This document shows, piece after piece, positions 1,089 to 57,143 of a stretch of 64,000 nt of DNA (its first letter is position 1; each line of letters opens with the position of its first letter). A program made the position numbers and the translations under genes. Origin of the DNA: a virus; the IMG/VR virus record IMGVR_UViG_3300043395_001987, positions 1-64,000 of that record, one strand, 5' to 3'. The notes under the pieces were generated by a model. The model was not told the origin of the DNA. It did no database searches and saw only the letters and a program-made list of their open reading frames with translations.

Positions 1089-1448
1089 TTATCCCATTAT
1101 TAAACCGTTTTCAGGAGGAATATCTGGTCCTCCTAACACTGCAGTTCCTAATCTACCAGCATTTGATGGTGATTCTAGGGGTGCAAATGATGTAGTACTA
1201 CCTGCTGTAATTACCGCACGACATCCACAAATACTTCCATCAACTGCTGTAATTTTACCCTCACATTTGAAATTACCCGAACCATTTGTAATAGGCGTTA
1301 CACCATGACCTGGTATTGGGCAAACATGTAAATCACCAACACGTGCTGTCAGGATCCCTTCAGTTCTAGCTGTTGAGGCGCTTGTTATTATAACACCACC
1401 ATGACTACTAGAGTCACCTAATCGTGCTATAAGTGATACACTTCCCAT
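1089..1448 (-). CDS. PAAR-repeat spike-tip protein (gp5.4-like)
   Basis: A 119-residue protein with the PAAR-family pattern. It opens with a hydrophobic strand and ARLGDSSSHGG, followed by SASTARTEGILTARVGD, then a Cys/His-bearing segment (HVCPIPGHG) and further Cys residues (CEGK, CGCR). These provide candidate metal ligands. PAAR proteins form a sharp cone that caps the central spike of contractile tails, and T4 gp5.4 is the equivalent. Here the gene lies in the adhesin cluster, far from the spike gene at 54979-56760, but the product should sit at the tip of that spike. Length and motif spacing are normal for the family. Confidence 0.85.
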   Translation of the reverse strand: MGSVSLIARLGDSSSHGGVIITSASTARTEGILTARVGDLHVCPIPGHGVTPITNGSGNFKCEGKITAVDGSICGCRAVITAGSTTSFAPLESPSNAGRLGTAVLGGPDIPPENGLIMG

Positions 1449-3005: not shown

Positions 3006-3626
3006 TTAGGCACCTAAAAGACTCTTGAACTCTTCAGTGTGTTTTTTGCGATCTTCAAGACCAATTGTTCCGCCGTTGATCTTTTTTGTAACAGCAGTAA
3101 CATCGTCTTTATCAGCTAATGCATTAAGACCATTTTTATGCCAGAACCAAGCAGCTGATTCACAAGCACCCTCTGGAGTCTCAAGATAAAGAGCACATTC
3201 TTCAACAGTAATACCCATATCAGAAGCCATTGCTGAGTAGTTATTCTTACCAGTAAGCTGAATCAACCCGCGACCACGATAACGGAAACCATCACCTGAT
3301 GCAGTATCGCCATTACCCATACGTGATGCATAAACTACGTTAGCAATCTTTTCTGGTTGACGAGCATATTCAGCAGCATTACGTCCAGCATTTTTAAAAT
3401 ATTTTGGAAATACCTTATCAAGACTCTCAGCTGAGTAGTTAAGATTTTCTACAATAGCTCTAAAACCACCAGACTCGTGTGCAGTCTGAGCAAGGAAATG
3501 AGCAAGGCGAAGCGGAGTATTGATTTCATATTTTTCAGCGAAATTATCTAGACTGCCTGCAAGTGCTTTAACAACTTCTGGCTTTGAACTAGGATAACCG
3601 TGTTTAATTTGTTCTTCTGTAAGCAT
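3006..3626 (-). CDS. Endolysin, glycoside hydrolase family 19 (chitinase-like muramidase)
   Basis: A 206-residue protein of the GH19 fold that many phages use as endolysin. Visible hallmarks are AHESGGF at residues 50-56, with the candidate catalytic Glu51. Also present are the sugar-groove segment YRGRGLIQLTGKNNY (116-130), ESAAWFW (156-162) and the INGG turn near 183-186. It would cleave peptidoglycan beta-1,4 bonds at lysis. There is no signal peptide, so a holin or export route is expected, but none was recognised nearby. A clear Shine-Dalgarno (AGAGGTAG) precedes the ATG. Its codon and amino-acid style looks less AT-biased than its fibre neighbours, and its place among adhesin genes is unusual for T4-like layouts. 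Confidence 0.88.
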   Translation of the reverse strand: MLTEEQIKHGYPSSKPEVVKALAGSLDNFAEKYEINTPLRLAHFLAQTAHESGGFRAIVENLNYSAESLDKVFPKYFKNAGRNAAEYARQPEKIANVVYASRMGNGDTASGDGFRYRGRGLIQLTGKNNYSAMASDMGITVEECALYLETPEGACESAAWFWHKNGLNALADKDDVTAVTKKINGGTIGLEDRKKHTEEFKSLLGA

Positions 3627-5124: not shown

Positions 5125-6156
5125 TTATGTAGTTGGGAAACCTTTGGCTGACATCAAACCAAACCAAGTAACACCACCATCAAATGTCATAAAGGTAACA
5201 AAATCTGTATAATTAGGTTGTGTTGATAGGGTAGGACCATCAGGTGCGTATATACCTTCACCCGCTGGCCAGTAGATTGTTTGGTTAGACCAATCTACCG
5301 TTCTTCCGCCTGTCGAATCTTGTTTAAGAGCTATGGTCATACTAAATGATTTGCCTGCAACAAGACCAGATGTACCTAAAGTTATTGCAACAATATCCTG
5401 ATTTAAAGTAAGAGTTGCAAGATTACCATCAGCAGGATCAACTATAATTGTTGTACCTGAATTACCTTTAGCGTTAATCACTTCACTATAATTTTGAAAT
5501 GAAGGGGCATAGATAGTATTACCACTAAAATTCATTCCAGTTGAAACAGAATTTGTAATATAAGCTCCGGAGTCAAATGTGATGCCCGTTGCATTAGCAT
5601 TTACTCTGAGGAAGAAATTGCCTTTACCAGAATAAGTTTGTGGAACATCTGTTAAGTTGATAAAGGCAAGAGTACCAGTGGCACCAGTTGAACCTCTGTA
5701 ACCTACATCACCCTGTGATCCTTTATAACCAACAGAACCCTGGAATCCTTCTGATCCCTGATAACCCTCAGAACCTTTATATCCTTCTGATCCTTGATAT
5801 CCAGCAGAGCCCTGATAACCCAAATTACCTGCAGAACCTGTATAGCCAACAGATCCCATATAGCCCGTATCACCTAATGAACCCTGATATCCTGAAACGC
5901 CTACAGGCCCATCTGGTCCAGTTGAGCCTGTAAATCCTGTTGTTCCTTGTGATCCAGTAAATCCAGCAGACCCTCTATAACCAGCAGAACCAGTATAACC
6001 TGTTAATTCAGATAATGGCTTTCCTAAGATAGCCATAACTGCATTATTAGACCAATACGGACCCTGTGATCCAATTACAATAAGAGATCCTACATCGGCC
6101 TGACCGCCGGTAGAATTAGCTGTATCTATCTGGGAAACATAAATTTTGGTAGCCAT
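5125..6156 (-). CDS. Collagen-like tail fibre protein
   Basis: A 343-residue protein. A short N-terminal segment (about 1-50) is followed by a collagen-like stalk of Gly-x-y triplets (about 50-165), built mainly from GYTGS, GYQGS and GFTGS hexads with almost no proline. A C-terminal globular beta-rich domain (about 165-343) includes a VDWSNQTIYWP segment and ends with FDGGVTWFGLMSAKG. Such triple-helical stalks occur in many phage fibres. It is the first gene of a minus-strand unit headed by a perfect T4-type late box 36 bases upstream. It is divergent from the heptose operon. Confidence 0.75.
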   Translation of the reverse strand: MATKIYVSQIDTANSTGGQADVGSLIVIGSQGPYWSNNAVMAILGKPLSELTGYTGSAGYRGSAGFTGSQGTTGFTGSTGPDGPVGVSGYQGSLGDTGYMGSVGYTGSAGNLGYQGSAGYQGSEGYKGSEGYQGSEGFQGSVGYKGSQGDVGYRGSTGATGTLAFINLTDVPQTYSGKGNFFLRVNANATGITFDSGAYITNSVSTGMNFSGNTIYAPSFQNYSEVINAKGNSGTTIIVDPADGNLATLTLNQDIVAITLGTSGLVAGKSFSMTIALKQDSTGGRTVDWSNQTIYWPAGEGIYAPDGPTLSTQPNYTDFVTFMTFDGGVTWFGLMSAKGFPTT

Positions 6157-6271: not shown

Positions 6272-7426
6272 ATGATTTGTGTCATTGGTGATTTTATATC
6301 TGATATTTATGTGTATGGTGAAATAAACAGGATTTCACCCGAATCTCCCATACCAATCTTCAAAAAAATGAATGAAGAGATCAGGCAAGGTGGCGCTGGC
6401 AATGTTGTTGCCAATTTAAAAGCTCTCGGAATAGACCCAAAAACATTTGGTTCTAACAATTCATCAAAATACAGATTTGTAGTTGATAAACACATTTTAT
6501 TTCGTATGGATGATGAAAATTATGTTGCTAATATTGATAAACCTAGTTATAATTTAAATGATGTCAATTACGTAATAATATCAGATTATAATAAAGGATA
6601 TCTGCATAATAGTCAAGAGATAATCAATTACTGTAAGAATAATAATTGTTTTGTTATAGTGGATCCTAAGAAATCAATTGATAATTATAAAAATGTAGAT
6701 ATTGTTAAACTCAATGAAAAAGAATTAAAAGAGTATTGTTCTTCATATAACAATATTGAAGATATTTTAATTGATAATAATATTGGATGTTTAATAGTTA
6801 CTAAAAGTGCTGATGGAGCTATTATTCACACCCTCAATAATACTATAGAAATTGAAGCAGAACAACACCAGGTATCTGATGTAACAGGTGCTGGTGATAT
6901 TTTTATTGCTGTGCTTACATATTTTTTAAATAAAGGAAATGATCTTGAAAGTGCTGTAAGAAAAGCAGTAAAACTTGCAAGTATATCAGTTACTAAATTT
7001 GGCACTTATACTTTACAGCCTGAAGATATTAAAAAAGCATATACTGTTTTTACTAATGGATGTTTTGATATTATTCACAAAGGTCATGTTGAATATCTCA
7101 AAAAATCAAAACAACTTGGTGATAAATTAATTGTTGGTTTAAATTCTGATTCTTCAGTTAAAAGATTAAAGGGTGAAGATAGGCCTGTTAATAATCAACA
7201 GGATAGAAAAGCTGTTTTAGAATCACTAGATTGTGTAGATGAAGTTATTATTTTTGATAACGATACACCCTATGAACTTATTAAGAGTATTCAACCCGAT
7301 ATTATTACAAAGGGTGGTGACTATACATCGAATACTGTTGTTGGTAATGATCTTGCTGATGTTGTTATTATTCCTTATGTAGAAGGTTATTCAACTAGTA
7401 AAATTTTGGAGAAATCAGTTGGTTAA
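6272..7426 (+). CDS. hldE: HldE-like bifunctional heptose-7-phosphate kinase / heptose-1-phosphate adenylyltransferase
   Basis: A 384-residue two-domain protein. The N-terminal PfkB-type kinase (about 1-255) has GDFISD, then RISPESPIPI (20-29) and the GGAGNV segment (40-45), both characteristic of heptose kinases. It ends with DVTGAGD (203-209), whose Asp209 is the expected base. The C-terminal nucleotidyltransferase (about 256-384) has FTNGCFDIIHKGH (260-272, HxGH motif) and KGGDY (347-351). In bacteria HldE phosphorylates D-glycero-D-manno-heptose 7-phosphate at C1 and later adenylylates the 1-phosphate. E. coli HldE has 477 residues. Here about 45 residues after the Gly-rich segment, in the kinase lid region, are missing, but catalytic motifs remain. 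It is the first gene of an operon ending in hldD. Substrate specificity is inferred from motifs. Confidence 0.85.
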   Translation: MICVIGDFISDIYVYGEINRISPESPIPIFKKMNEEIRQGGAGNVVANLKALGIDPKTFGSNNSSKYRFVVDKHILFRMDDENYVANIDKPSYNLNDVNYVIISDYNKGYLHNSQEIINYCKNNNCFVIVDPKKSIDNYKNVDIVKLNEKELKEYCSSYNNIEDILIDNNIGCLIVTKSADGAIIHTLNNTIEIEAEQHQVSDVTGAGDIFIAVLTYFLNKGNDLESAVRKAVKLASISVTKFGTYTLQPEDIKKAYTVFTNGCFDIIHKGHVEYLKKSKQLGDKLIVGLNSDSSVKRLKGEDRPVNNQQDRKAVLESLDCVDEVIIFDNDTPYELIKSIQPDIITKGGDYTSNTVVGNDLADVVIIPYVEGYSTSKILEKSVG

Positions 7427-7778
7427 AAGAATTGTTGAAAAGGGTTGGGGTAAAGAAATAATATTTGCCAATCATCCTGAATATTGCGGCAAACTCTTAA
7501 TATATGATAATGAAGGTTCAACAAGTTCCATGCATTTTCATAAAGATAAAAAAGAATCTTGGTATGTCTTACAGGGATCTTTTGAATATAAAACTATAGA
7601 TACATCAACAGGTAAAGTTCAATCAAGTATTATGTACCAAGGTGATACATGTACAAACTTTCCTTTATTGATTCATCAATTAATTGCATTAGAATCAAAC
7701 TCGATAATTATAGAAACCTCTACTTACGATAGTGGTGAAGATAATTATAGGGTTATTCCAGGAGATAGTCAAAAGTGA
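7419..7778 (+). CDS. Small cupin-fold protein, sugar metabolism
   Basis: A 119-residue single-domain cupin. It shows GWGKE near residue 10, then the metal-binding pattern SMHFHKDKKESWYVLQG (H-x-H with a downstream Glu and Gly) and a later PLLIHQL with the third His. It resembles the cupin halves of mannose-6-phosphate isomerase/GDP-mannose pyrophosphorylase and small sugar-phosphate cupins. Its reaction is unknown; within a heptose operon an isomerase or epimerase role is possible. The start is a TTG at 7419 that overlaps the hldE stop by 8 bases. GGAG at 7408-7411 is well spaced for it. The tight overlap implies translational coupling. Confidence 0.7.
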   Translation: MVKRIVEKGWGKEIIFANHPEYCGKLLIYDNEGSTSSMHFHKDKKESWYVLQGSFEYKTIDTSTGKVQSSIMYQGDTCTNFPLLIHQLIALESNSIIIETSTYDSGEDNYRVIPGDSQK

Positions 7779-8086
7779 AATACTTAGTAGATATAGACGG
7801 AACAATATGTTCTCTAACAGATGGTAAATATGAAGAAGCAATACCTTTTGTTGATAGAATAAAATATTTAAATGAAATGTATGATAAGGGTCATACAATT
7901 GTTTATTGGACCGCAAGAGGTGGCAATTCTGGTAAAGATTGGTCATTGTTAACCAAGCAACAGTTATTTGATTGGAATGTAAAATATAATGAATTGCTAT
8001 TTAATAAGCCAACATACGATATATGGATTGATGATAAAGCAATGAACGCAGAAAGATTCTTTGATGATATTGATAACTGGGTATAA
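7775..8086 (+). CDS. Small HAD-superfamily phosphatase
   Basis: A 103-residue HAD-like protein. Motif I is DIDGTIC (Asp6 nucleophile, Asp8 acid), motif II is the Thr in YWTARGG (about 44-50), and motif IV is the acidic YDIWIDDKA (81-89). It resembles small HAD proteins found in capsule and lipopolysaccharide loci. In the ADP-heptose pathway a HAD phosphatase (GmhB) removes the C7 phosphate from heptose 1,7-bisphosphate between the two HldE steps. GmhB is larger (about 190 residues), so equivalence is an inference from context. It starts at GTG 7775, overlapping the cupin stop by 4 bases, with GGAG at 7761-7764. Confidence 0.75.
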   Translation: MKYLVDIDGTICSLTDGKYEEAIPFVDRIKYLNEMYDKGHTIVYWTARGGNSGKDWSLLTKQQLFDWNVKYNELLFNKPTYDIWIDDKAMNAERFFDDIDNWV

Positions 8087-8840
8087 AGGGTTTATTGGCA
8101 GTAATCTTATAAAAAGATTTAAACCTGAAGATCTTATTTTGGTTGGATATGAAGATTGTTTTTCTTCTTTATTTTTAACTGATTGGTCTAAGGTAACCAA
8201 GATATATCATTTAGGTGGCATAAGTGATACTACATGTAGTGATTTAAATTTACTACATGAATACAATGTAAACTTTACTATGGAATTATTCAATCGTGCT
8301 AAAATACATAATATCCCTATCGTTTATGCTTCTTCAGCTTCTGTATATGGTAATAGCCTTACATATACTCCTAACCCATTGAACCATTATGCAATATCTA
8401 AAGCTAATGTTGATATATGGGTAGAATCTAATTATAAAGATTTTAAAAATATCATCGGTGTTAGATTTTTTAATGTTTATGGTGATGGTGAAGATCATAA
8501 AGGAAATCAAGCTTCACCAATTCATCAATTTACTTTGCAGGCTAAACAAAATAAAAACATAAAAGTTTTTGAAGGGTCTGATAATTTTATTAGAGATTTT
8601 ATTTGGGTTGAAGATGCTATTGATTGTATAATTGAAGATAAACATTCTGGCATATATGACGTAGGAACATCAAAACCCGTATCATTTAGATTCATAGCTG
8701 ATTTGATAGCAAAGAAATATAATTGTTCTGTAGAAGAAATAAAATTTCCGGAAAAATTAAGGCACAAGTATCAATTCTATACATGTGCCCGTAAACATTA
8801 TAATAAACAATTTATGGATGTTAGAGAATACTTAAAATAA
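8064..8840 (+). CDS. hldD: HldD-like ADP-heptose 6-epimerase (SDR family)
   Basis: A 258-residue extended short-chain dehydrogenase/reductase. It has the NAD(P) motif GYKGFIG (6-12), SSASVYG near 90 and the catalytic YAISK (Tyr109, Lys113). Beyond the generic fold it carries features specific to HldD: FFNVYG..EDHKGNQAS, containing the Lys equivalent to the second acid/base of E. coli HldD; FEGSDNFIRDF; SGIYDVGTSKPVSF; and FPEKLRHKYQ. HldD converts ADP-D-glycero- to ADP-L-glycero-D-manno-heptose. It is somewhat shorter than E. coli HldD (310 residues). I chose ATG 8064 over TTG 8061 because GAAAGA lies 7 bases before it. It overlaps the HAD gene by 23 bases and ends one base from the convergent GT25 stop. 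Confidence 0.82.
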   Translation: MILITGYKGFIGSNLIKRFKPEDLILVGYEDCFSSLFLTDWSKVTKIYHLGGISDTTCSDLNLLHEYNVNFTMELFNRAKIHNIPIVYASSASVYGNSLTYTPNPLNHYAISKANVDIWVESNYKDFKNIIGVRFFNVYGDGEDHKGNQASPIHQFTLQAKQNKNIKVFEGSDNFIRDFIWVEDAIDCIIEDKHSGIYDVGTSKPVSFRFIADLIAKKYNCSVEEIKFPEKLRHKYQFYTCARKHYNKQFMDVREYLK

Positions 8841-8841
8841 A

Positions 8842-9552
8842 TTATCTTTCATCACCAATATTTTCTTCTTTTAAACTTACATTCTTTTTACGATTAACAA
8901 TTGTTGTACCTTCAAATTTATCATAAGCAAATAATCCGGCTTGTGATATATTAAATATATCTGCTCTAAGAACAACATCAAGGGATTCGCATATACCTCT
9001 TTGTATAGTATGAGCAACTAAGTTTTTTGCAATCTGCGGATCTATTGCATAGGCATGAGCTCTACAAATAAAATGGTAATTGTGATTTAAAGTACCGTGC
9101 GGAGGTATATTAATTATTGGCATGGTACCTTTTTGTTGTTCTAAGCTTCCTAGATAAACAATAGTGTTATATCCGGTATGATACAAATAAGGTTTTATCA
9201 TTACCGCGTCATGTTCTAAGATCACAATTGGCTTATCTAATTCAATACATCTTGTCCATAAAGAAAAATGACTTAGATAACAAGCTATCTCAGTGATAGA
9301 AAGATGGTGATCAAATACCTTCAGCCATTTTAAATGATTTGAATTTTTTGAATGTTCAGGTATCTTAATAGAGACATTATCAGTACCGTCAAAGGCATCC
9401 CAAACCTGATAAGGCATTCTTATATTTTCACATGAATGTTGACATCTCAGAGATAATTTCTCAGACTGCATGTGATCTTTAATAGTTATGATATAGGCAG
9501 ATTCTACTCCTATATCATAACTATATTGCAATGATTTTGATAAATCAATCAT
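8842..9552 (-). CDS. Family 25 glycosyltransferase (LPS-type)
   Basis: A 236-residue GT25 protein. It has an N-terminal YIITIKD strand and the WDAFDGTD segment. The family signature follows: LSITEIACYLSHFSLW, then ILEHDAVM, in which EHD takes the place of the metal-binding EDD/DxD. A later CRAHAYAID segment matches the family's acceptor-side loop. GT25 enzymes add galactose or similar sugars to lipooligosaccharide, and relatives glycosylate collagen hydroxylysine. It lies 3 bases downstream of the GT9-like gene and is co-oriented with it, so the pair should share the promoter at 11372-11400. Its acceptor is unknown. Its stop is one base from the hldD stop with no obvious terminator hairpin. 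Confidence 0.8.
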   Translation of the reverse strand: MIDLSKSLQYSYDIGVESAYIITIKDHMQSEKLSLRCQHSCENIRMPYQVWDAFDGTDNVSIKIPEHSKNSNHLKWLKVFDHHLSITEIACYLSHFSLWTRCIELDKPIVILEHDAVMIKPYLYHTGYNTIVYLGSLEQQKGTMPIINIPPHGTLNHNYHFICRAHAYAIDPQIAKNLVAHTIQRGICESLDVVLRADIFNISQAGLFAYDKFEGTTIVNRKKNVSLKEENIGDER

Positions 9553-9555
9553 TTA

Positions 9556-11346
9556 TTATCTTTTAAAGACTGTTTTTTCAGCTCGAGCTTTATCTAATTC
9601 ATCTCTGAAGAATTTAATTTTTTCAGTCTTCAAATCTTCTTTGCCATATCTTCCTGGTTTATGAACTTGCACAAGCATCTTAGTACTTAATATGATATTG
9701 CTAAGATGATTCATTCCATATTCTAATTGAGATCTCAAAGCATCGGGTTCAACCTTATCTTTATTTTTTTCAATCAGATTATGCCAAGCATCTGTATATT
9801 CATATTCAACATCCACCAATTCAATATCAACATCATTTAAGAAAGCAAGATAAGAATCGGAACTTCCCGCTAGAATTTTTTCATAATTTAATTTCATATC
9901 AAACATTCTAATAGTGCTTGGTGTAATAGTTCTTACATGTGATGGGTCATCCCAATAAATTTCACAACGATGATGTGGAACTTGAATTTCCCATAGTGCA
10001 CCATTATCAGAGATTCTATACATCTCCTTAATGATATCAGTAAATGATACACCATCATGACCAAGATGCTCAAGAATATCTTTAGCAACAATGTGCATAT
10101 ATTCATCATCAGGCCATGGCCATTTTTTAGAATTTAGATCAACAACTTCATCTGGATTGCAAATTTCTGAGTAGTCAACATTATGGAAATCATCAAACTT
10201 TTTAAATCCACAACCAATATTCAATCTTCTTACTTCTTTATCTCTTGAAGGAAGATCAACATGTTCAAGATTAAACTTTCTTTCTAGTTCTTTATAAAGA
10301 ATTTGGAAGGTGTTATTCCATACATCTTTTTGTTCTTGTCTAAAGAGAGTAACACTTTCATAGTAAGGTGTCTTAATAGAATAAGGTGCATTCAAAGCCC
10401 ACGTGTGATAAGGTAACAATGGAGTTATAATCCATGTTTCTTTACCAAGAGCTGCAGAGGCATGAGCTACTGCTGTGCAACTTGTAATAACTAAATCTAA
10501 ATTAGAAATAGCAGCAAGTGTATCATCCCAGGTATTGATTTGATCTTTAAGGTCAATAATTTCTTCCGGAAGATTTACAAGATTGTTATCACGTTGTAAA
10601 GAATATAATTGAATTTCTTTATATTCAGAAAGTTGTGTTAAGAAATTAACTGGAAATCTTCTGAATTGCTGATGTTCAAATTTAGGATTACCAGCCCATC
10701 TAATACCAACTTTATATTTCTTATCCGTCTTAATAATATCTTTCCAGCTTTCTACCATATCAGGTAAAGCAGTCAAATAGGGATTACCAGGAAAATCTTC
10801 AAATGTATATCCACAAATCCATCCTGCACTAAATCCTGGAATCCAGAAATCATGAGGAACAGTATTTGATTCCATTCTGGAAATACATTTTTCAACACCG
10901 TCAATTCTTGAGATAATAGAAGCAAGCTGAGGATCACAAGCTACATAAACATGATTTGCTTTAAGTTTACGCTTGAGTGATGTTGCAAATCTTGCATGAA
11001 TCAATTCATCACCGAGACCACCTTCAAGTGATAGAATAATATTCTTGCCTTCTAAAGAATGTTCATTTGGATTATAGATTGGTGCTGTAGTTCTTAGTGG
11101 AGGACTGCCGTAGACATTAATGAATCTACCATTTTCTAACAATTCACAACCTTCACGATATTTGTTCTGTTGTAACAAAAACCATCCACGATTGAAGCTG
11201 TGTCGAATCCACATTTCAGGATTTGGTTTGCCTTCAGGATCTAATATACCCTGAGGTCCTAAGCTTTGCAATTCTTCTGAAATTTTCCAGGCTTCATCAA
11301 ACTTGCCTTCAAGCATCAATTTAAGTTGTAAATCAATCTTATGCAT
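9556..11346 (-). CDS. GT9/heptosyltransferase-like glycosyltransferase fused to a methyltransferase
   Basis: A 596-residue protein. Residues about 1-80 look helical and TPR-like (FDEAWKISEEL; NRGWFLLQQNKY). Residues about 95-345 are GT-B like GT9: GGLGDELIHARFATSL, GIRWAGNPKFEHQQFRR and DLVITSCTAVAHASAALG. The last corresponds to the donor-site TavaH-AgaLG motif of heptosyltransferases. Residues about 370-500 are a class I methyltransferase-like domain (LNIGCG; DLNSKKWPWPDDEY; DILEHLGHDG). The C-terminal about 90 residues are helical. The GT9 family uses ADP-heptose, which the convergent operon should supply, but TPR-GT9 proteins may use other donors. GGAG precedes the ATG by 6 bases. Confidence 0.75.
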   Translation of the reverse strand: MHKIDLQLKLMLEGKFDEAWKISEELQSLGPQGILDPEGKPNPEMWIRHSFNRGWFLLQQNKYREGCELLENGRFINVYGSPPLRTTAPIYNPNEHSLEGKNIILSLEGGLGDELIHARFATSLKRKLKANHVYVACDPQLASIISRIDGVEKCISRMESNTVPHDFWIPGFSAGWICGYTFEDFPGNPYLTALPDMVESWKDIIKTDKKYKVGIRWAGNPKFEHQQFRRFPVNFLTQLSEYKEIQLYSLQRDNNLVNLPEEIIDLKDQINTWDDTLAAISNLDLVITSCTAVAHASAALGKETWIITPLLPYHTWALNAPYSIKTPYYESVTLFRQEQKDVWNNTFQILYKELERKFNLEHVDLPSRDKEVRRLNIGCGFKKFDDFHNVDYSEICNPDEVVDLNSKKWPWPDDEYMHIVAKDILEHLGHDGVSFTDIIKEMYRISDNGALWEIQVPHHRCEIYWDDPSHVRTITPSTIRMFDMKLNYEKILAGSSDSYLAFLNDVDIELVDVEYEYTDAWHNLIEKNKDKVEPDALRSQLEYGMNHLSNIILSTKMLVQVHKPGRYGKEDLKTEKIKFFRDELDKARAEKTVFKR

Positions 11347-11408: not shown

Positions 11409-14400
11409 TTATCTGGAACTTACAAATACTGTTGCTGAATCTCTCGTTGAGCTAGCAAATATTGACACCCACTTATTAGAAGTTCCAATTTGAACAGGTG
11501 TTGTTTTCCATGCAGCTGTTGCATTGTCACCTGCTAAACCATATGAATTCTTACCCCATGACCAAAGTGTACCATCAGCTTTAATACCAATTATTGTGTA
11601 ACTAACGTCAGCTGCAACTGTTGAACCAATAGCATAAACTTGTTTCCACTTAGCCGATGAACCAATAATTGTAGGTGAAGATTGTACTGTATTAGTTAAA
11701 ATAGGAGGTCTGAAACCACCTATTCTTCCCCAACCCATTAATAAACCATCATAATTGATACCGAAAATTGATCCTTCACTCGCTGTAATATATTTATAGT
11801 GTTGCATATAATAGTCTTCAGTGTTTTTATATCCTGACTGAATTGAAACAGGAGATCCCTTACCAAATACGTTACCCCACCAATAAACATAATCATCAGC
11901 ACCTATAGCAACACCGACACTTTCACCAATAGATGCTGATTTAAATTTTTGAATGCCAGTTCTGGTTACAGTAGGTTTAGTAATTTGTGTATCTAATCTA
12001 TCATTTTTACCCCATACACCTGTACTATTATCAGTACCCCACTGTAATAAATTGCCGTACACGTCAACACCAATATTTAAATTTTGTATTTGACTAATTG
12101 AAGTAAATGGTGCAAGACCGTTTGGTAGTGTCTGAAGAGTGTTGTTGCTATTTGTAATAGCAGCATTCCAGTGATACTGTAATCCGTTGACATTATTTGC
12201 AAACCCACCATATGCACCCAATTGATTCCATTTAGTTAACCCAAGACTAGTCCAAGAACCTTCCCAACTAGGTAGGCTTAAATTTGTATCAACAATATTA
12301 TAATTATAATGTCCTACCAATGCGTCATATGGTACATATACTCCTCCATGCCATCCTGCAACAGCTAATTTATTATTCTGTGATGGATCTTTAATAAACA
12401 CAAAAGGTTGATCATATGTTCCAGAATCTGAATTATTTTCAGTTCCAAAATTATTTGGACCTAGTGGATATGTTTTAGAAAATTCTAATAATTTTGGCCA
12501 AGGTATTGGTGCACCGGCACTTCCTGAGTAATTATAAATGTTGTTTGCATAACCTGCAATGTTTGTACCAATATTTAATTCTGTTGGTGCTAATTCAGCA
12601 CTCTGAACTGATGCTCTAGAAGTGGCAGTTTTACCATTCATTCTATCTGCCATATATCCAGTGACAAATGCTTTTCCTTCACTATCAAAAAGAATAGATG
12701 TATGGTTAGCACTACACCACACTGAAACCCATTGTGATGCTAAAGCTGTGCCCGCTATACCGGATATACCTACTAAAACTGGTGAAGATCTATTAATTGT
12801 ACTATTATCACCCAATGCTCCTCTACCATTATATCCCCAACCCCAAGCCTGTCCACCAGTATCAATTGCAATATTGTGATACTGGCCTGCTGACATAAAG
12901 GTAAATGAAGTACCCGATTTAACTTGAATTGGTGAAGATTTATTTACTGTAGTACTATCACCAAGTTGTCCCTGATCATTCGTACCCCAAGTCCATAGTT
13001 TACCAAGAGTATCTAATGCTAACGCCCCGGCAGCTCTTGCCTTTACAAGTACAAAACTTGTTCCCGCCATAAGCTGAACAGGTGATGATCTAGAAATAGT
13101 AGTTGTATCACCTAATCTACCATCACCATTATAACCCCAAGCCCACAACTGACCTAAACTATTTAAAGCAAATGTTGTAGCACTACCGGTTACAATATCA
13201 GTCCAATTATTTGCTGTTCCAATTTGAACAGGTGATGATCTGTTAGTTAATGCACCAAGAGTTTGGGCTAATTCACCATTACCATTATATCCCCAACCCC
13301 ATATAGTACCATCAGTTCTAATTCCCACTTTATGAATATTATGACCGGCAAATTTACTCCATTTACCAGGCAATTTTCTAAAATATGAAAATGTAGGACG
13401 AGATAACTGAGTTGCTGCTATAACATCAAGATCCACGTTAAAAGATAAAGACTCACCATAACCATCATATCCCTTAAACCACAAATCATCATTATTATCA
13501 ACAACAAATATACTTTCGTAGTTAATTACAGTTCTTGATGATATCTGCTTAACTGACAAATCTTGACTATAAAGTACATCAAATCCATTTATATCGTTAC
13601 AATATGTCCATGTATCCCAATTTGATGTATAACGACCATGTCCTAAACCTTTGAATCCTAAGAAACCACCTGAGGGATGATTATATCCTGAAGCTATGAC
13701 TCTACCATCAACAGTTAGACCAAAGAAATTAGTATCATTGCCAGCAATAGCAGTAAAACTTGAACCAGCAAAAATTTGAACTGGTGAATAATACACACTA
13801 TATGGTCCATATTTGGGTTTTATTTCACCACCACTATTTGCTCCCCACCCCCATACTGTACCATCTGATCTTAGTGCAGCCACAGCACTATGTTTAGTCG
13901 CAATAGCAGTATAACTATAAAAATTTAAAGGAACATAATCAAATAAGAAATTATAGATAGTTACGGTGTTGTTATTTTGCCAAGCAAATCTACCCGAGCC
14001 TGAAGATCCTATTAATTTAAGAACACCAGGTTGATCAGATCTTACCAGTCCCTGAACTGATAATAATGCAACACTGCTCACAGCATACACTTGTGTCAAT
14101 GATGATCTTCTACCTAAAGAACCCGTTGGATCTGTACTCCAATCATCACCAAGTGGTTGTGAAGTTGTATTTTCACCTGTTGCCCAAACAGTTCCGTCAC
14201 TACGAAGAGCCCAATATTGTCTACCAGAATAACTATGTGCAACTTGTGTATAAGACGAAGAAGAAATAAGAACAGGGGATGATCTTTGTAATGTAGTACC
14301 ATCACCAACTGATCCTTGGCTGTTTTCACCCCAGGCCCATAATCTACCGTTGATATCAATAGCTGTAGCAGTAGATATACCCGCTTTAACAATAGTAAAT

Positions 14401-16079
14401 GAAGATCCACCAGCAATTTGAATTGGTGAAGATTTGTTTATAGTAGTGTTATCACCAAGTTGACCAACGTGGTTTCTTCCCCAGGCGTATAATTTACCTA
14501 CTGTATCAATTGCATAACTTGAATCAAAGGATACACCAACATAAACAAAACTTGTACCTGCTAAGACTTGTACTGGTGAAGACTTATTAATAGTAGTATT
14601 ATCGCCTACTTGACCATATGCATTATACCCAAATCCCCACAGTTTATAAGTAGAATCAATGGCCATAGTATGAGATGGACCGGTTGCAACAAAATTAAAA
14701 CTAGTACCTGATTTAACTTGAATTGGTGAAGATTTATTTACAGTTGTACTATCACCAAGTTGTCCTAGGTTATTAGAACCCCATATGAATAGTTTACCAT
14801 CTGTTCGAATAGCTGCTGCAATTTTTTCAACATAATTTCCAATAGAAACAAAATTCCAAGATCCTCCGACCTGTGTAGGAGAAGATCGATCAATGGTTGT
14901 ACTCTGACCCAATTGACCTTTATCACTTCCTCCCCACATCCATAATGTATAATCATCTTTGATTGCAGCACAATAATAATCATCGGTTGCTATAGCTCTG
15001 TAGAATTTTGCAGTACCAGAAACATTGTATCCGATCTGCATAGGGCTTTTATAAGATGCAGATCCATATGGGGTTGTTCCATATCCTGACCCCCAGACCC
15101 ACAATCCGTTGTTTGCAGAATCAATAGCAACCGTATGCCCGCCACCAAGATTTGAGGCTAATACAGCTGTCCAGCTTCCTGCAACCTGTGTAGGAGCATT
15201 TCTTAATATGGTTGTACCATCACCAAGAGCATATGTACCATTATATCCCCAACCCCATAATGTTCCATTTGTTCTAAGTGCAACAACATGTGAAGCCCCT
15301 GCATGAACAAAATTATATGAAGCACCTACGTTAATGGCAGTTTCTGTAAGAGCTCCTGAACCAGTACCACCATTACCAATCATGCCAATAGAGTTGTTTC
15401 CTAAAGCATAAAGTTGATAATTGCTGTCAATGTAATGGATCGTTCTATAGCTGGGCGCATACCAAATATAATTAGTTGTTGCGTAGATATATGATTTATT
15501 TGTAACCTGAACAGGTGAAGATCTATTTGTACCTGAATTATCACCAAGTTGATTGTTGTTATTTAAACCCCAGGCCCAAAGTGTACTATCTGATCTGATT
15601 GCAGATGCAGCAGAACCAGATGCATTAATAGAGTTCCATGATCCTGGAACTTGCACTGGTGATGATCTATTGATAGTGGTAATATCACCCAATTGACCAA
15701 CAGTATTTAATCCCCAAGTATAAATTTTACTATTATAATCTAAGGCAACAAAGAAGTTATTACCGGCAACAAGATCTTTAAATTTTGAGGCACTGATCTG
15801 AACTGGTGAAGACCTATCAATGGTTGTATTATCACCCACTTGCCCACTTGAATTTCTTCCCCAACCCCATAATGTACCGTCAGTCTTGATTGCGGCAGCT
15901 GCTTCACCACCATTGACAACTTTTTTCCAAGTACCAGAAATTAAAACAGGACTTGATCTAGTTGCAACACTATAGGTTCCATCCCAGATTTGATAGAAGG
16001 CAGAAGCACCCCAACCATATACGTTGGAGTAACCTACAGTTGAAGAACCATCACCAGCAAGTAAAAAATTATTAAACAT
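11409..16079 (-). CDS. Giant RCC1-repeat (beta-propeller) virion protein
   Basis: A 1556-residue protein made almost entirely of RCC1-type repeats of about 50 residues. Typical units read WGWGxNxxGQLGDxTTxxRSSPVQI, followed by an AIxxxGxLW strand. I count roughly 25 recognisable units, enough for three or more seven-bladed propellers. Repeats around 650-850 and 1140-1420 are more degenerate. There is no signal peptide or enzymatic motif. RCC1 propellers bind proteins or chromatin in eukaryotes; in phages the role is unknown, with a large receptor-binding or fibre-shaft structure most likely given the neighbours. Ser/Thr-rich blades could be glycosylation acceptors, which is speculative. A tail-fibre assembly chaperone is encoded just upstream. 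Confidence 0.85.
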   Translation of the reverse strand: MFNNFLLAGDGSSTVGYSNVYGWGASAFYQIWDGTYSVATRSSPVLISGTWKKVVNGGEAAAAIKTDGTLWGWGRNSSGQVGDNTTIDRSSPVQISASKFKDLVAGNNFFVALDYNSKIYTWGLNTVGQLGDITTINRSSPVQVPGSWNSINASGSAASAIRSDSTLWAWGLNNNNQLGDNSGTNRSSPVQVTNKSYIYATTNYIWYAPSYRTIHYIDSNYQLYALGNNSIGMIGNGGTGSGALTETAINVGASYNFVHAGASHVVALRTNGTLWGWGYNGTYALGDGTTILRNAPTQVAGSWTAVLASNLGGGHTVAIDSANNGLWVWGSGYGTTPYGSASYKSPMQIGYNVSGTAKFYRAIATDDYYCAAIKDDYTLWMWGGSDKGQLGQSTTIDRSSPTQVGGSWNFVSIGNYVEKIAAAIRTDGKLFIWGSNNLGQLGDSTTVNKSSPIQVKSGTSFNFVATGPSHTMAIDSTYKLWGFGYNAYGQVGDNTTINKSSPVQVLAGTSFVYVGVSFDSSYAIDTVGKLYAWGRNHVGQLGDNTTINKSSPIQIAGGSSFTIVKAGISTATAIDINGRLWAWGENSQGSVGDGTTLQRSSPVLISSSSYTQVAHSYSGRQYWALRSDGTVWATGENTTSQPLGDDWSTDPTGSLGRRSSLTQVYAVSSVALLSVQGLVRSDQPGVLKLIGSSGSGRFAWQNNNTVTIYNFLFDYVPLNFYSYTAIATKHSAVAALRSDGTVWGWGANSGGEIKPKYGPYSVYYSPVQIFAGSSFTAIAGNDTNFFGLTVDGRVIASGYNHPSGGFLGFKGLGHGRYTSNWDTWTYCNDINGFDVLYSQDLSVKQISSRTVINYESIFVVDNNDDLWFKGYDGYGESLSFNVDLDVIAATQLSRPTFSYFRKLPGKWSKFAGHNIHKVGIRTDGTIWGWGYNGNGELAQTLGALTNRSSPVQIGTANNWTDIVTGSATTFALNSLGQLWAWGYNGDGRLGDTTTISRSSPVQLMAGTSFVLVKARAAGALALDTLGKLWTWGTNDQGQLGDSTTVNKSSPIQVKSGTSFTFMSAGQYHNIAIDTGGQAWGWGYNGRGALGDNSTINRSSPVLVGISGIAGTALASQWVSVWCSANHTSILFDSEGKAFVTGYMADRMNGKTATSRASVQSAELAPTELNIGTNIAGYANNIYNYSGSAGAPIPWPKLLEFSKTYPLGPNNFGTENNSDSGTYDQPFVFIKDPSQNNKLAVAGWHGGVYVPYDALVGHYNYNIVDTNLSLPSWEGSWTSLGLTKWNQLGAYGGFANNVNGLQYHWNAAITNSNNTLQTLPNGLAPFTSISQIQNLNIGVDVYGNLLQWGTDNSTGVWGKNDRLDTQITKPTVTRTGIQKFKSASIGESVGVAIGADDYVYWWGNVFGKGSPVSIQSGYKNTEDYYMQHYKYITASEGSIFGINYDGLLMGWGRIGGFRPPILTNTVQSSPTIIGSSAKWKQVYAIGSTVAADVSYTIIGIKADGTLWSWGKNSYGLAGDNATAAWKTTPVQIGTSNKWVSIFASSTRDSATVFVSSR

Positions 16080-36734: not shown

Positions 36735-36754
36735 TTTTTATAATGAGGTATATT

Positions 36755-39529
36755 ATGAACCTTCCCAATATTGCTATACTTGATTTGATAGGCCTGGTTT
36801 ACGATGGCACAACTCTCCAAAAAAGAGGTTTGGGTGGTTCAGAATCTGCAGTTATTCTTATTTCAAAAGAACTAGCTAAACTAGGATTTCCTATTACTGT
36901 TTTTAATGCTTGTGATGTGGATGATGCAAAATCAGGAATTTATGATGGTGTAATTTATAGACCCATCTCAAGTTTAAATTCTAATGATAAATTTGATATT
37001 GTAATATCATCTAGAACGGTTGTTCCTTTTGTTCCTGATCATTATTATGATGCATTTGCAACAGCAACAAGACATCATCCAAGCCTTTTTAAAACAATCA
37101 GAGATAATGCAGAACTTAAGATTATGTGGATGCATGATACTTTTGCATCAGGTGATCTTAATTTAGAAGATCTATTAGTAAATGGATTTATTGATAAAAT
37201 CTTTACATTATCAGATTTTCATACTGCTTATGTTACTAATTGCAATCATGGCCGCCGACGCAATTTTGAAGTGTTAAAGAATAAAGTATTTCAAACAAGA
37301 AATGCTATTGTTAATTATATTGATGAGGTTGATATTGGTGCAAAAGATAGAAATCTTTTTGTTTACAATGCTTCCGTTACAAAAGGCATGTTGCCTCTTA
37401 TTGATGGTATATGGCCTCAAGTAAAAAGATATATCCCTGATGCTAAATTAAAAATAGTTGGAGGATATTATAAATTTAGAGACGATTCACCTTTAGATGC
37501 TCAAGGTGAAACTCTTATGAAGCTTGTAAAAGAACAAAAGTATAAAGACCTTGATATTGAATTTACTGGTATTATTACACAAAAAGAAATAGCTGAATTA
37601 CTTGCTAAAGCCAATATGTTTCTTTTCCCTGGTGCCTTTCCAGAAACATTCGGCATATCAACATTAGAATCTTTAACATATAATACTCCTCTTGTGGCTA
37701 CCCGTTTTGGGGCCTTAGAAGAGACAGCTATTGATTTGGCTTCTTACTTTATTGATTATGCAATTGAACCTAATAGCCTGTTTACAGAAATAAACACCCA
37801 AGATCAAATTAATAAATTTGTTGAGAAAGTGTTTAGAGCTTATAATGATCCTTATCTTCATCAACAAAAACAATATTACTGTAATGTAATTAAAGATATC
37901 AATACTTGGGATACTGTTGCCTTACAATGGAAACAATTCTTCCTAAAACAATTTGATATACCTTTACCTGTTAATGAATATCGTAAGGTTACTTACATTA
38001 ATGATAAGGTTCATCGTGTCTATGGTAGAAGGTTTGCTAATAAAGAAGAAGGCCATAATTATAAGTTAGGACATGAACAACCAGTAAGTATTATTACACC
38101 TTTTTATAATGCAGAAAAATATATTGCTAATTGTATTAATTCTGTAGCCTCTCAAGACTATAACAACTATATGATGTACCTGATTAATGATTGTAGTACA
38201 GATAATTCATTAAATATAGCCAAAGAGTGCATTGATAGTTTTCCTAAAGATATTCAGGGTAAATTTGTTATTATTAATAATAAAGCTAATAGGGGAGCAG
38301 TTTATAATCAAATTAGAACCTTAAAAACATTTCCTATTGATGATGATAGTCTTGTTATGTTTTTAGATGGTGATGATTGGTTAAGAGCAGATAATAATAT
38401 ATTTAATTTTTACAATAATCTTTTTGCTAATGATAAAACCGATTATGCTTATGGTAGTTGTTGGTCTTTAGCAGATAATATTCCTTTGATTGCTCAACCC
38501 TATCCTAAAGAAATTAAAAAGAACAAATCATATAGAGAACACAAATTTAATTGGGGAATGCCTTATCCTCATCTTAGAGTCTTTAGAAAAAAATTGATCA
38601 ATAATATTGATGAAGAAGTTTTTAAAGATGAGGTTGGTAATTGGTTTAAAGCAGGTGGAGATAATGCAACTTTTTATAATATAATTGAACAAGCTGATCC
38701 TAATAAGATTGTAGCTGTTCAAGAAATATTTTATAATTATAATGATACAAATCCTATTAATGATTATAAGGTACACGGTGAATTACAAAACCAAAATGCT
38801 GCAAAAATAACGAGTAATTCCAAACCGATCGAGGCCCCTGAAGTTATAGAAAATTTTAAAGAATCTAAAGATATTATTAATCAAGTAGCCAAAGAAATAA
38901 ACAACAAGACAAAGGTAATCAATTCATATATGAAGAAGAAAATTTTAATTGCTATACCTACTGCAAGAAATATAGAGGCTCAAACTTTTAAATCAATTTA
39001 CGATTTAATTATCCCAGATGGATATGAAGCCAATTTTCAATATTTTTATGGATATCAAGTAGATCAAGTACGCAATCTTATAGCTGACTGGGTTGTCAAA
39101 GGCTATGATTATCTCTTTGCTGTTGATTCTGATATTGCTTTTGCACCTGATACATTACTCAAACTTCTATTACATGACAAAGATATTGTTTCCGGTATCT
39201 ATAGACAACGTGTTCCCGAAAGACAAACTTTGGAAATCTTTGAGTCTAATGATAAGGGTGGCTATACTCACATTGATTGGGAAAAGATTAAGGGTAAGGG
39301 AGTTGTTGAGATAGGTGCTTGTGGATTTGGATGCGTTCTTATTAAAAAGAATGTTTTAGCAGATATTGGATATCCACAATTTGCATATAAATCAGCTCTT
39401 GATCATAACCATACTTTCTCAGAAGATTTATATTTTGCTAAAATGGCTTCTGAAAAAGGTTATAGATTCTATGCTGACACTTCTATCGTCTGTGATCACA
39501 TAGGATCATACGTATTCAAAGTATCTTAA
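36755..39529 (+). CDS. Three-domain glycosyltransferase (GT4 + GT2 + GT-A)
   Basis: A 924-residue polypeptide with three glycosyltransferase domains. Residues about 1-405 are GT-B/GT4-like (GLGGSESAV near the N-terminus; FPETFGISTLE with the Ex7E motif near 297-305). Residues about 440-660 are GT2 (VSIITPFYNAEKYI; LINDCSTDNS; LDGDDW near 537-542). Residues about 727-924 are a second GT-A fold (ILIAIPTARNIEA; VDSDIAF with DSD near 791-793; a late SEDLYFAKMA). A polar linker of about 50 residues separates the last two. Start 36755 is preferred over ATG 36743 because GAGG overlaps the earlier codon and is well placed for the later one. The sequential addition of two or three sugars is inferred; donors and acceptor are unknown. 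Confidence 0.82.
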   Translation: MNLPNIAILDLIGLVYDGTTLQKRGLGGSESAVILISKELAKLGFPITVFNACDVDDAKSGIYDGVIYRPISSLNSNDKFDIVISSRTVVPFVPDHYYDAFATATRHHPSLFKTIRDNAELKIMWMHDTFASGDLNLEDLLVNGFIDKIFTLSDFHTAYVTNCNHGRRRNFEVLKNKVFQTRNAIVNYIDEVDIGAKDRNLFVYNASVTKGMLPLIDGIWPQVKRYIPDAKLKIVGGYYKFRDDSPLDAQGETLMKLVKEQKYKDLDIEFTGIITQKEIAELLAKANMFLFPGAFPETFGISTLESLTYNTPLVATRFGALEETAIDLASYFIDYAIEPNSLFTEINTQDQINKFVEKVFRAYNDPYLHQQKQYYCNVIKDINTWDTVALQWKQFFLKQFDIPLPVNEYRKVTYINDKVHRVYGRRFANKEEGHNYKLGHEQPVSIITPFYNAEKYIANCINSVASQDYNNYMMYLINDCSTDNSLNIAKECIDSFPKDIQGKFVIINNKANRGAVYNQIRTLKTFPIDDDSLVMFLDGDDWLRADNNIFNFYNNLFANDKTDYAYGSCWSLADNIPLIAQPYPKEIKKNKSYREHKFNWGMPYPHLRVFRKKLINNIDEEVFKDEVGNWFKAGGDNATFYNIIEQADPNKIVAVQEIFYNYNDTNPINDYKVHGELQNQNAAKITSNSKPIEAPEVIENFKESKDIINQVAKEINNKTKVINSYMKKKILIAIPTARNIEAQTFKSIYDLIIPDGYEANFQYFYGYQVDQVRNLIADWVVKGYDYLFAVDSDIAFAPDTLLKLLLHDKDIVSGIYRQRVPERQTLEIFESNDKGGYTHIDWEKIKGKGVVEIGACGFGCVLIKKNVLADIGYPQFAYKSALDHNHTFSEDLYFAKMASEKGYRFYADTSIVCDHIGSYVFKVS

Positions 39530-56762: not shown

Positions 56763-57143
56763 TTATCCACAATAATTGTTATACAAAGTGTTTAAATTAT
56801 GTTCTAATTTATTATGATCTGCAGTAATTGTTGCATTATCAGTAAACATAGATAGATCTTTCATAATTTTATATAGTGTAATTTTTTGCTGCTCAGTAAG
56901 ATAATAATTAGAGTGTAAAACGTTTAATTTGCTATTGACGAATTTATTCAACCCACCAATAATACATACAGTTGCATTCTTTTCACTAGCTTGTGATCCC
57001 TGATAAACCGATCCATCTACATCAATTATAAATGTAAAGTTACTATAGTCATTTAAATTTACATTCTCACCTCTTGTAGTATTAGAAAAGGTGAAATTTA
57101 AATTTGTACTGTAGGATACTGCAGTTGGGGCAACTCTATTCAT
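56763..57143 (-). CDS. Amidase_2/T7-lysozyme-like protein, probably degenerate
   Basis: A 126-residue protein. The segment FTFIIDVDGSVYQGSQASEKNATVCIIGGLNKFVN, then LTEQQKITLYKIMKDL and ATITADHNKLEHN, follows the order of N-acetylmuramoyl-L-alanine amidases such as T7 lysozyme (YHFIIKRDGTV; GVCLVGG; FTPAQ; LRAHHEV). The first zinc-ligand His expected before the core is not visible, and the HHEV region reads DHNK, so activity is doubtful. It may keep a peptidoglycan-binding or structural role. It overlaps gp5-like by 4 bases and precedes the spike gene, indicating a role in the hub. Confidence 0.55.
   Translation of the reverse strand: MNRVAPTAVSYSTNLNFTFSNTTRGENVNLNDYSNFTFIIDVDGSVYQGSQASEKNATVCIIGGLNKFVNSKLNVLHSNYYLTEQQKITLYKIMKDLSMFTDNATITADHNKLEHNLNTLYNNYCG

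What the first reader, a model, noticed from the sequence alone, without database searches (positions are those of the whole stretch)
6272..8840. Phage-encoded ADP-heptose biosynthesis operon
Four tightly overlapping genes encode HldE-like kinase/adenylyltransferase, a cupin, a small HAD phosphatase and an HldD-like epimerase. The HldE and HldD motifs are specific, not only fold-level: RISPESPIPI, DVTGAGD and HKGH for HldE; EDHKGNQAS with the second catalytic Lys, FEGSDNFIRDF and FPEKLRHKYQ for HldD. With HAD acting as GmhB, only GmhA (sedoheptulose-7-phosphate isomerase) is missing for full ADP-L-glycero-D-manno-heptose synthesis. The product is a glycosyl donor and a known activator of ALPK1 in animals. 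Operon-level carriage among fibre genes is unusual.
Basis: partly seen in the sequence, partly recalled or inferred. Interest (0 to 1): 0.85.

Follow-up and report, generated by a model that had tools for sequence, protein, structure and literature searches.

The report
Phage heptose operon with cupin isomerase
A virus of bacteria carries a compact set of genes for making an activated seven-carbon sugar, and a small barrel-shaped (cupin) enzyme in it most likely does the first step that is normally assigned to a different enzyme, which is absent here.

Summary
In detail: four overlapping + strand genes (6272-8840) encode an HldE-like kinase/adenylyltransferase, a cupin, a small HAD phosphatase and an HldD-like epimerase, in a T4-like phage contig. 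The cassette is not new as such: cyanophages P-SSM2, S-SSM7, S-CAM3, P-TIM68 and S-SM2 carry the same functions. The interest lies in the "missing" GmhA. A SIS-type isomerase was found in 0 of 36 phage records, but the cupin is in 122 of 123 phage loci with kinase plus adenylyltransferase (the exception is cut by its contig end). In sampled Patescibacteria, where HldA, GmhB and HldC are recognisable, the cupin takes GmhA's place in the operon, is fused to HldA in both orders, and rarely co-occurs with GmhA (12 of 13 cupin-linked genomes lack SIS_2; 24 of 25 other HldA genomes have it). Best explanation: the cupin is a non-orthologous sedoheptulose-7-phosphate isomerase, and the small HAD stands in for GmhB (never both in one locus). 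In the five cyanophage records read, the HAD is labelled 'phosphoheptose isomerase' and the cupin 'cysteine dioxygenase'. No enzyme activity has been shown.

The parts
6272..7426 (+). HldE-like bifunctional protein: PfkB-type heptose-7-phosphate kinase (about residues 1-255) fused to a nucleotidyltransferase (about 256-381)
   Evidence: kinase and transferase in one ORF in 30 of 123 related phage loci, separate genes in P-SSM2, S-SSM7, P-TIM68 and S-SM2
7419..7778 (+). cupin, proposed sedoheptulose-7-phosphate isomerase (GmhA substitute); HxHxxKxE (H39, H41, K44, E46) plus H86
   Evidence: linkage; Patescibacteria; tree; motif; model pLDDT 94.8
7775..8086 (+). small HAD phosphatase (EcbF-BcbF-like), proposed GmhB stand-in
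   Evidence: in none of 122 loci together with a GmhB-type gene
8064..8840 (+). HldD-like ADP-glycero-manno-heptose 6-epimerase (258 aa, ATG start)
   Evidence: 1eq2 E 2.8e-35
8842..9552 (-). family-25-type glycosyltransferase, neighbour, possible user
9556..11346 (-). TPR plus GT9-like (heptosyltransferase-fold) domain plus methyltransferase-like C-terminus, possible ADP-heptose user
   Evidence: cassette within about 6 kb in only 5 of 33 related loci

Best explanation
The operon is a self-contained ADP-heptose pathway starting from the host's sedoheptulose 7-phosphate. Inferred steps: the cupin isomerises sedoheptulose 7-phosphate to D-glycero-D-manno-heptose 7-phosphate, the step GmhA performs elsewhere; the kinase half of the HldE-like protein adds a phosphate at C1; the small HAD removes the C7 phosphate in place of GmhB; the nucleotidyltransferase half adds AMP; the HldD-like epimerase inverts C6. 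The product would be used by phage glycosyltransferases, on fibres or on the host surface. Shown here: gene content, family placement, conserved motifs, no GmhA found, genetic linkage, fusion and near-exclusion. Not shown: any enzyme activity, or what the sugar is used for.
For: (1) Of 160 phage loci, 123 hold kinase plus adenylyltransferase and 122 of these hold the cupin; L121 lacks it but ends at its contig edge. In the HldD-anchored subset, chosen without regard to the cupin, 60 of 61. The set appears in many arrangements (18 order strings, some differing only by a cut-off or undetected gene); the cupin is on the kinase's strand in 130 of 131 loci. (2) GmhA: TIGR00441 in 0 of 6 records, the window's own and five cyanophage genomes titled complete; SIS_2 in 0 of 30 further phage records, many of them fragments; a GmhA HMM in 0 of 183 fetched loci plus the window, while it finds GmhA in 14 of the control loci. 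(3) 38 distinct HldA-bearing Patescibacteria from two samples (286 and 338 genomes): 13 have the cupin next to or fused with HldA and 12 of these lack SIS_2 at 1e-8; of the other 25, 24 have SIS_2 (Fisher p 6e-8, uncorrected for kinship). Fusions: cupin N-terminal to HldA in 10 genomes, C-terminal in G263 (kinase part 351 and 340 bits with TIGR02198 in G211 and G263). GmhA itself is N-terminal to HldA in one ORF in G169. (4) The operons match in content: GmhA, HldA, GmhB, HldC against cupin, HldA, GmhB, HldC. (5) In the HldA tree the cupin-linked G035 sits with GmhA-linked G127 (95/80) inside a GmhA-linked clade, and well-supported branches force at least two changes of partner. (6) A 100/98 branch parts these cupins from 22 others that include all six found beside a mannose-1-phosphate guanylyltransferase motif. 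(7) HxHxxKxE also stands in the L-ribose isomerase aligned. (8) Small HAD in 69 loci (all within 100 bases of the cassette), linked GmhB in 35, both in 0.
Against: No activity is known. Some cupins of this type stand alone: 8 of 80 cupin-anchored phage loci (L057 and L085 start within 1 kb of a contig end; L053 and L055 have full 10 kb flanks) and 7 of 18 cellular loci show none of the other four genes. Prochlorococcus AG-409-P03 has the cupin but no HldA match at 1e-30. Structure search does not single out isomerases: CapF, KdgF, phosphomannose isomerase, quercetinase and D-lyxose isomerase lie within about one Z unit, and with the broader profile oxalate-decarboxylase-type bicupins rank first. 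G399 has the cupin fusion and a weak, unlinked SIS_2; G557 has neither. Picocyanobacterium G666 has HldE and HldD but no SIS_2, and no cupin within 1.5 kb, so HldE can occur with neither. Most N-terminal fusions may share one origin. 9 of 16 cellular genomes with the cupin also have an SIS_2 match. Some genomes are MAGs and may be incomplete. The small HAD's relatives occur in 384 phage records, mostly not cyanophages, so it is not heptose-specific as a family; one 70% kinase cluster holds both HAD- and GmhB-type loci.
Confidence: 0.8

Rival explanations
1. The cassette makes ADP-heptose, but the host supplies heptose 7-phosphate through its own GmhA; the cupin is a tailoring enzyme, for example an epimerase or ketoisomerase on the nucleotide sugar, as other small cupins in sugar clusters are.
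For: Best NCBIfam hit is WbuC, a sugar-cluster cupin, below cut-off. Structure matches are generic. 11 of 39 picocyanobacterial genomes have SIS_2.
Against: 28 of 39 picocyanobacteria have no SIS_2 at 1e-8 and 31 of 39 no HldA at 1e-30, though this phage's host is unknown. 12 of 13 Patescibacteria with cupin-linked HldA lack SIS_2, and in 11 the cupin is fused to the kinase, which acts before any nucleotide sugar exists.
Confidence: 0.13
2. The cassette makes another ADP-activated sugar, not a heptose; the kinase and epimerase are relatives of HldE/HldD with a changed substrate.
For: All heptose profile scores are below curated cut-offs, and the phage kinase lacks roughly 40 residues of HldA.
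Against: HldE and HldD profiles beat the best other family by more than 100 bits; epimerase Y109, K113 and K146 are invariant in six phages; 35 related loci carry a linked GmhB-type gene in the same set.
Confidence: 0.06
3. The operon is decaying or silent cargo.
For: None found; it only runs against most neighbouring genes.
Against: Four intact overlapping frames with conserved motifs; relative contig L007 holds the same cassette with a 99% identical cupin.
Confidence: 0.01

Closest known systems
Cyanophage heptose genes T4-GC 304-308 (P-SSM2, S-SSM7, S-SM2) and their relatives in S-CAM3 and P-TIM68
   Same: Same functions, near tail fibre genes in P-SSM2 and S-CAM3; PMC7378029 (passages read) names heptose-related LPS genes in cyanophage SynMITS9220M01.
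   Different: Kinase and adenylyltransferase are separate there, fused here; gene order differs; there the HAD is annotated 'phosphoheptose isomerase' and the cupin 'cysteine dioxygenase'.
ADP-heptose pathway GmhA-HldE-GmhB-HldD of E. coli (recalled)
   Same: HldE and HldD homologues; same chemistry proposed.
   Different: GmhA replaced by a cupin, GmhB by a small HAD.
Phosphomannose-isomerase-like cupins beside mannose-1-phosphate guanylyltransferase in Patescibacteria
   Same: Nearest other cupins found; same HxxKxE core; phosphomannose isomerase also links a ketose phosphate and a D-manno aldose phosphate (recalled).
   Different: Q in place of H39 in 22 of 22 rows; a 100/98 branch between. 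That those cupins are isomerases is inferred from the neighbour gene.
WaaF/WaaC/TibC heptosyltransferases
   Same: GT9-like fold of the neighbour 9556-11346.
   Different: TPR and methyltransferase-like parts; 10-13% identity; low TM; linkage to the cassette in 5 of 33 loci.

Membership tests
HldE (heptose-7-phosphate kinase/adenylyltransferase) | PfkB kinase plus cytidylyltransferase-like domain, best match to HldE models | tested here: met
   best by more than 100 bits
HldE (heptose-7-phosphate kinase/adenylyltransferase) | Score above curated equivalog cut-offs | tested here: not met
   301 against 521, 184 against 345, 177 against 181.5 bits; a shortened homologue
HldE (heptose-7-phosphate kinase/adenylyltransferase) | GAGD kinase motif and HxGH nucleotidyltransferase motif | tested here: met
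   DVTGAGD and HKGH in the window; G206-D209 invariant in A4
HldD (ADP-heptose 6-epimerase) | Best match to HldD models and structures | tested here: met
   TIGR02197 195 bits against 41 for galE; 1eq2 E 2.8e-35
HldD (ADP-heptose 6-epimerase) | Score above curated cut-off | tested here: not met
   195 against 274.6 bits
HldD (ADP-heptose 6-epimerase) | Catalytic Tyr-x3-Lys and second Lys | tested here: met
   Y109, K113, K146 invariant in A3; catalytic roles recalled
GmhB | Match to a GmhB model | tested here: not met
   No GmhB model at E 0.01, unlike the GmhB-type genes of L010, L012, L172, L179
GmhB | HAD catalytic residues | tested here: met
   D6, D8, T46, K78, D87 invariant in A2; catalytic roles recalled
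GmhA | SIS-fold protein in the cassette or record | tested here: not met
   the record is a fragment
Cupin-type sugar(-phosphate) isomerases | Metal site HxH...E...H | tested here: met
   H39, H41, E46, H86 in the window; H41 and H86 invariant, H39 and E46 at least 90% in 66 rows
Cupin-type sugar(-phosphate) isomerases | Fold closer to isomerases than to other cupins | tested here: inconclusive
   tied with other cupins
Cupin-type sugar(-phosphate) isomerases | Ketose-aldose isomerase activity | not testable with these tools
   needs an enzyme assay
WbuC cupins | Score above TIGR04366 cut-off | tested here: not met
   30.9 against 42 bits
GT9 heptosyltransferases (9556-11346) | GT9 profile or fold | tested here: inconclusive
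   Pfam GT9 best E 0.039 in 5 of 10 members, not the window's own; Foldseek top hits are GT9, WaaF, TibC, WaaC at low TM

The most novel reading that the evidence does not exclude
ADP-heptose synthesis has a second, unrelated first enzyme, a cupin isomerase, shared by phages and Patescibacteria, and in phages a second C7 phosphatase (the small HAD). With both, a phage can make ADP-heptose in hosts that have no heptose pathway, and the adjacent GT9-fold enzyme may use it to heptosylate the phage's own repeat-rich fibres, as TibC does with an adhesin (recalled).
Probability: 0.25. Interest if true: 0.87.

Novelty: new variant of a known kind. Interest (0 to 1): 0.72.

Why it matters
If right, a missing step in phage and Patescibacteria heptose synthesis gets its enzyme, one assay can test it, and a widely copied label is corrected: the gene called 'phosphoheptose isomerase' in the five cyanophage records read and in PHROG 1238 is a HAD phosphatase homologue, while the likely isomerase is labelled 'cysteine dioxygenase'. 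A paper lists phosphoheptose isomerase (gmhA) among well-characterised auxiliary metabolic genes (PMC9238414, one passage read); whether its markers are this HAD was not checked. Searches for GmhA alone would score such pathways as broken.

Tried and rejected
GmhA elsewhere in the record: searched, none found. GT9-like gene as an obligate partner of the cassette: not supported, linked in 5 of 33 loci, three of them near copies of one another by their gene coordinates and scores. Structure search to name the cupin's reaction: not decisive. PDB profile search: with 6 rows, 7 of the 20 sequences listed are named sugar isomerases, the top four among them, and four more are chains of 7zvy, titled phosphomannose isomerase; with 66 rows bicupins rank first. 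Host of the phage: unresolved; baseplate wedge nearest to Stenotrophomonas, Caulobacter and rhizobial phages at 36-39%, GT9-like gene nearest to Synechococcus phage BUCT-ZZ01 at 49%.

Literature, listings only unless said: 'sedoheptulose-7-phosphate isomerase'+cupin, ADP-heptose+cyanophage, GmhA+cupin+heptose, phosphoheptose isomerase+cyanophage, ADP-heptose+phage-encoded, ADP-heptose+cupin, sedoheptulose+cupin+isomerase, GmhA+nonorthologous, heptose+cupin+lipopolysaccharide+phage, cyanophage+lipopolysaccharide biosynthesis+P-SSM2 (98). No listed title or abstract start describes a cupin in this role; the library lacks most subscription papers and all preprints. The P-SSM2 genome paper is not held.

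Rows dropped or chosen: the kinase tree leaves out the partial L242 and second copies L244, L245; kinases of TGA-containing genomes were read with table 25. The cupin tree uses 67 chosen rows; the unlinked cupins of G432 and G525 were not placed. SIS_2 was sought in 30 chosen records behind the 160 phage loci; the GmhA HMM covered all fetched loci L002-L184. Related-locus scans keep the best 80 of more matches.
Full report
What is there. The window is 1-64000 of a 76,168-base IMG/VR virus record. It carries T4-like baseplate and fibre genes, mostly on the - strand. Between a collagen-like fibre gene (5125-6156 -) and a glycosyltransferase gene (8842-9552 -) lie four overlapping + strand genes: HldE-like 6272-7426, cupin 7419-7778, HAD 7775-8086, HldD-like 8064-8840.

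Family placement. The HldE-like protein scores 301 bits with the HldE model, 184 and 177 with the kinase and transferase domain models, and 67 with the best non-heptose kinase model; the epimerase scores 195 bits with TIGR02197 and 41 with galE. All heptose scores are below curated cut-offs. PDB relatives: 5x9q (1.3e-32) for the transferase half, HldA 4e84 (4.3e-22) for the kinase, HldD 1eq2 (2.8e-35) for the epimerase. The HAD finds no GmhB model; its nearest are EcbF-BcbF and PDB 9iqw, a 'capsule biosynthesis protein' (1.7e-20, profile of seven phage HADs).

The cassette is known in phages. tblastn finds the kinase/transferase over at least 80% of its length in 32 of 50,697 phage records and the cupin in 35; by organism name all 35 are Synechococcus or Prochlorococcus phages, a cyanophage or marine viruses. 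In P-SSM2, S-SSM7, S-CAM3, P-TIM68 and S-SM2 the kinase, HAD, cupin and epimerase lie within about 9 kb in varied order; the adenylyltransferase is a separate annotated gene in four, and in S-CAM3 the tblastn match covers it. There the HAD gene is called 'phosphoheptose isomerase' and the cupin 'cysteine dioxygenase'. GmhA proper (TIGR00441) is in 0 of 6 records: the window's own and these five. Cyanophage SynMITS9220M01 is reported to carry heptose-related LPS genes including a 'phosphoheptose isomerase' (PMC7378029, passages); in that record the HAD match lies under features labelled 'hypothetical protein' and 'phosphoheptose isomerase'.

The cupin belongs to the pathway. I fetched 80 phage loci with the cupin as anchor and 80 with the epimerase as anchor and scored them with HMMs of the five domains. 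Of the 160, 123 hold kinase plus transferase; 122 of these hold the cupin; the exception, L121, ends at its contig edge inside the HAD gene. In the epimerase-anchored set the figure is 60 of 61. The 123 loci fall into 55 clusters at 70% kinase identity, each with the cupin in at least one member, and show 18 gene-order strings, some differing only by a missing gene. The gap between cupin and nearest cassette gene has a median of 12 bases over 146 loci. SIS_2 is in 0 of 30 phage records, and a GmhA HMM finds nothing in the 183 fetched loci L002-L184 and the window, while it finds GmhA in 14 of the later control loci. Against this, 8 of the 80 cupin-anchored phage loci show the cupin alone.

Two phosphatase solutions. 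Among the 122 loci with cupin, kinase and transferase, 69 have the small HAD, all within 100 bases of the cassette; 38 have a GmhB-type gene, 35 of them within 1 kb and on the same strand, three more than 8 kb away on the other strand; 15 have neither; none has both. Two of the GmhB-type genes match PRK08942 at 144 and 129 bits, below its cut-off of 178. So the small HAD stands where GmhB stands elsewhere, and loci such as L010 hold cupin, GmhB, transferase, kinase and epimerase with no GmhA.

The test in cells. Cupin loci in genome contigs (18) include Parcubacteria L179: a gene with 121 bits to heptosyltransferase II (below cut-off), the cupin, HldA, an ORF joining HldC and GmhB (GmhB 196 bits, over cut-off), and HldD, in this order, with one reverse-strand ORF between HldA and HldC-GmhB; and L172: cupin, HldA, GmhB (181 bits, over cut-off), HldC. 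Neither genome has an SIS_2 match. In 286 genomes of that phylum HldA (E 1e-30) is in 17; 12 have SIS_2 (E 1e-8) and the other 5 are exactly those with the cupin next to or fused with HldA. In a second sample of 338 genomes of one class (G211, G233 and G262 shared among HldA genomes) HldA is in 24: 10 with a cupin-HldA fusion, 13 with SIS_2 and no fusion, one (G557) with neither; one fusion genome (G399) also has a weak, unlinked SIS_2. Together 38 genomes: cupin-linked 13, of which 12 lack SIS_2; not cupin-linked 25, of which 24 have it; Fisher p 6e-8, not corrected for kinship. Of the 24, 16 have SIS_2 within 250 bases of HldA or in the same ORF, 4 within 3 kb, 4 on another contig. Ten genomes have the cupin N-terminal and G263 has it C-terminal to the kinase; G169 has GmhA N-terminal to the kinase. 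GmhB was found beside the kinase in 11 of the 13 cupin-type loci by HMM, plus in G041 as the L179 fusion, and HldC in 12 of 13. Some GmhA-type genomes also have weak or unlinked cupins; that of G262 falls on the other side of the cupin tree, those of G432 and G525 were not placed.

Phylogeny and motif. In a tree of 67 cupins a 100/98 branch puts 45 (22 phage, 13 HldA-linked, 9 other cellular, L199) against 22 others, among them all six with a guanylyltransferase motif next door (few columns, so many inner forks are open). Residue 39 is H in 43 of 45 and Q in 22 of 22; K44, H41 and H86 are invariant in all 67. In the HldA tree G035 (cupin) sits with G127 (GmhA) at 95/80, and well-supported branches force at least two changes of the cupin label. 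The cupin model is confident (pLDDT 94.8); fold matches are generic cupins, with phosphomannose isomerase and D-lyxose isomerase in a tied group.

Why a phage would need it. In 39 genomes of the family of Prochlorococcus AG-409-P03, SIS_2 is in 11 and HldA in 8; seven of those eight have SIS_2 and one (G666) does not, and no cupin lies near its HldE. So most such hosts could not supply heptose 7-phosphate by the known route. The host of this window's phage is not known.

Possible use. The neighbour 9556-11346 has an N-terminal TPR and a GT9-like domain: the model is good only in about residues 1-360, and Foldseek's best matches are GT9 3tov, WaaF 1psw, TibC 4rap and WaaC 6dfe at low TM. Pfam GT9 matches 5 of 10 members weakly. 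Its relatives have the cassette nearby in 5 of 33 loci, one of them the 100% identical L246. A heptosyltransferase is plausible but not tied to the cassette.

Judgement. The cassette makes ADP-heptose: likely. The cupin is the sedoheptulose-7-phosphate isomerase: likely (about 0.8), on linkage, fusion, replacement and near-exclusion; activity untested.

Noticed in passing
11409-16079 (-): 1556 aa protein rich in RCC1-like repeats (Pfam RCC1 E 8e-100), in the fibre region of the phage.
   Followed up: partly
36743-39529 (+): 928 aa protein with group 1 and family 2 glycosyltransferase domains, like the heptose operon on the + strand among - strand structural genes.
   Followed up: no
phage annotation, PHROG 1238 / T4-GC 306: A HAD phosphatase homologue is labelled 'phosphoheptose isomerase' in PHROGs and in five cyanophage records.
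   Followed up: yes
1089-1448 (-), 3006-3626 (-), 57140-58096 (-): PAAR motif, GH19-type and tail lysozyme domains.
   Followed up: no
L038 8078-8881: Fructose-bisphosphate aldolase-like gene (NCBIfam 242 bits, cut-off 392) inside a phage heptose cassette; transketolase-like genes near the cassette in P-TIM68 and S-SM2, perhaps feeding sedoheptulose phosphate.
   Followed up: no
L289-L299: HldA genes in sampled Patescibacteria with in-frame TGA codons in the standard reading, which suggests TGA recoding.
   Followed up: no
60894-61337 (+): TnsA-like endonuclease N-terminal domain (Pfam E 2.5e-24) in the phage's structural region.
   Followed up: no
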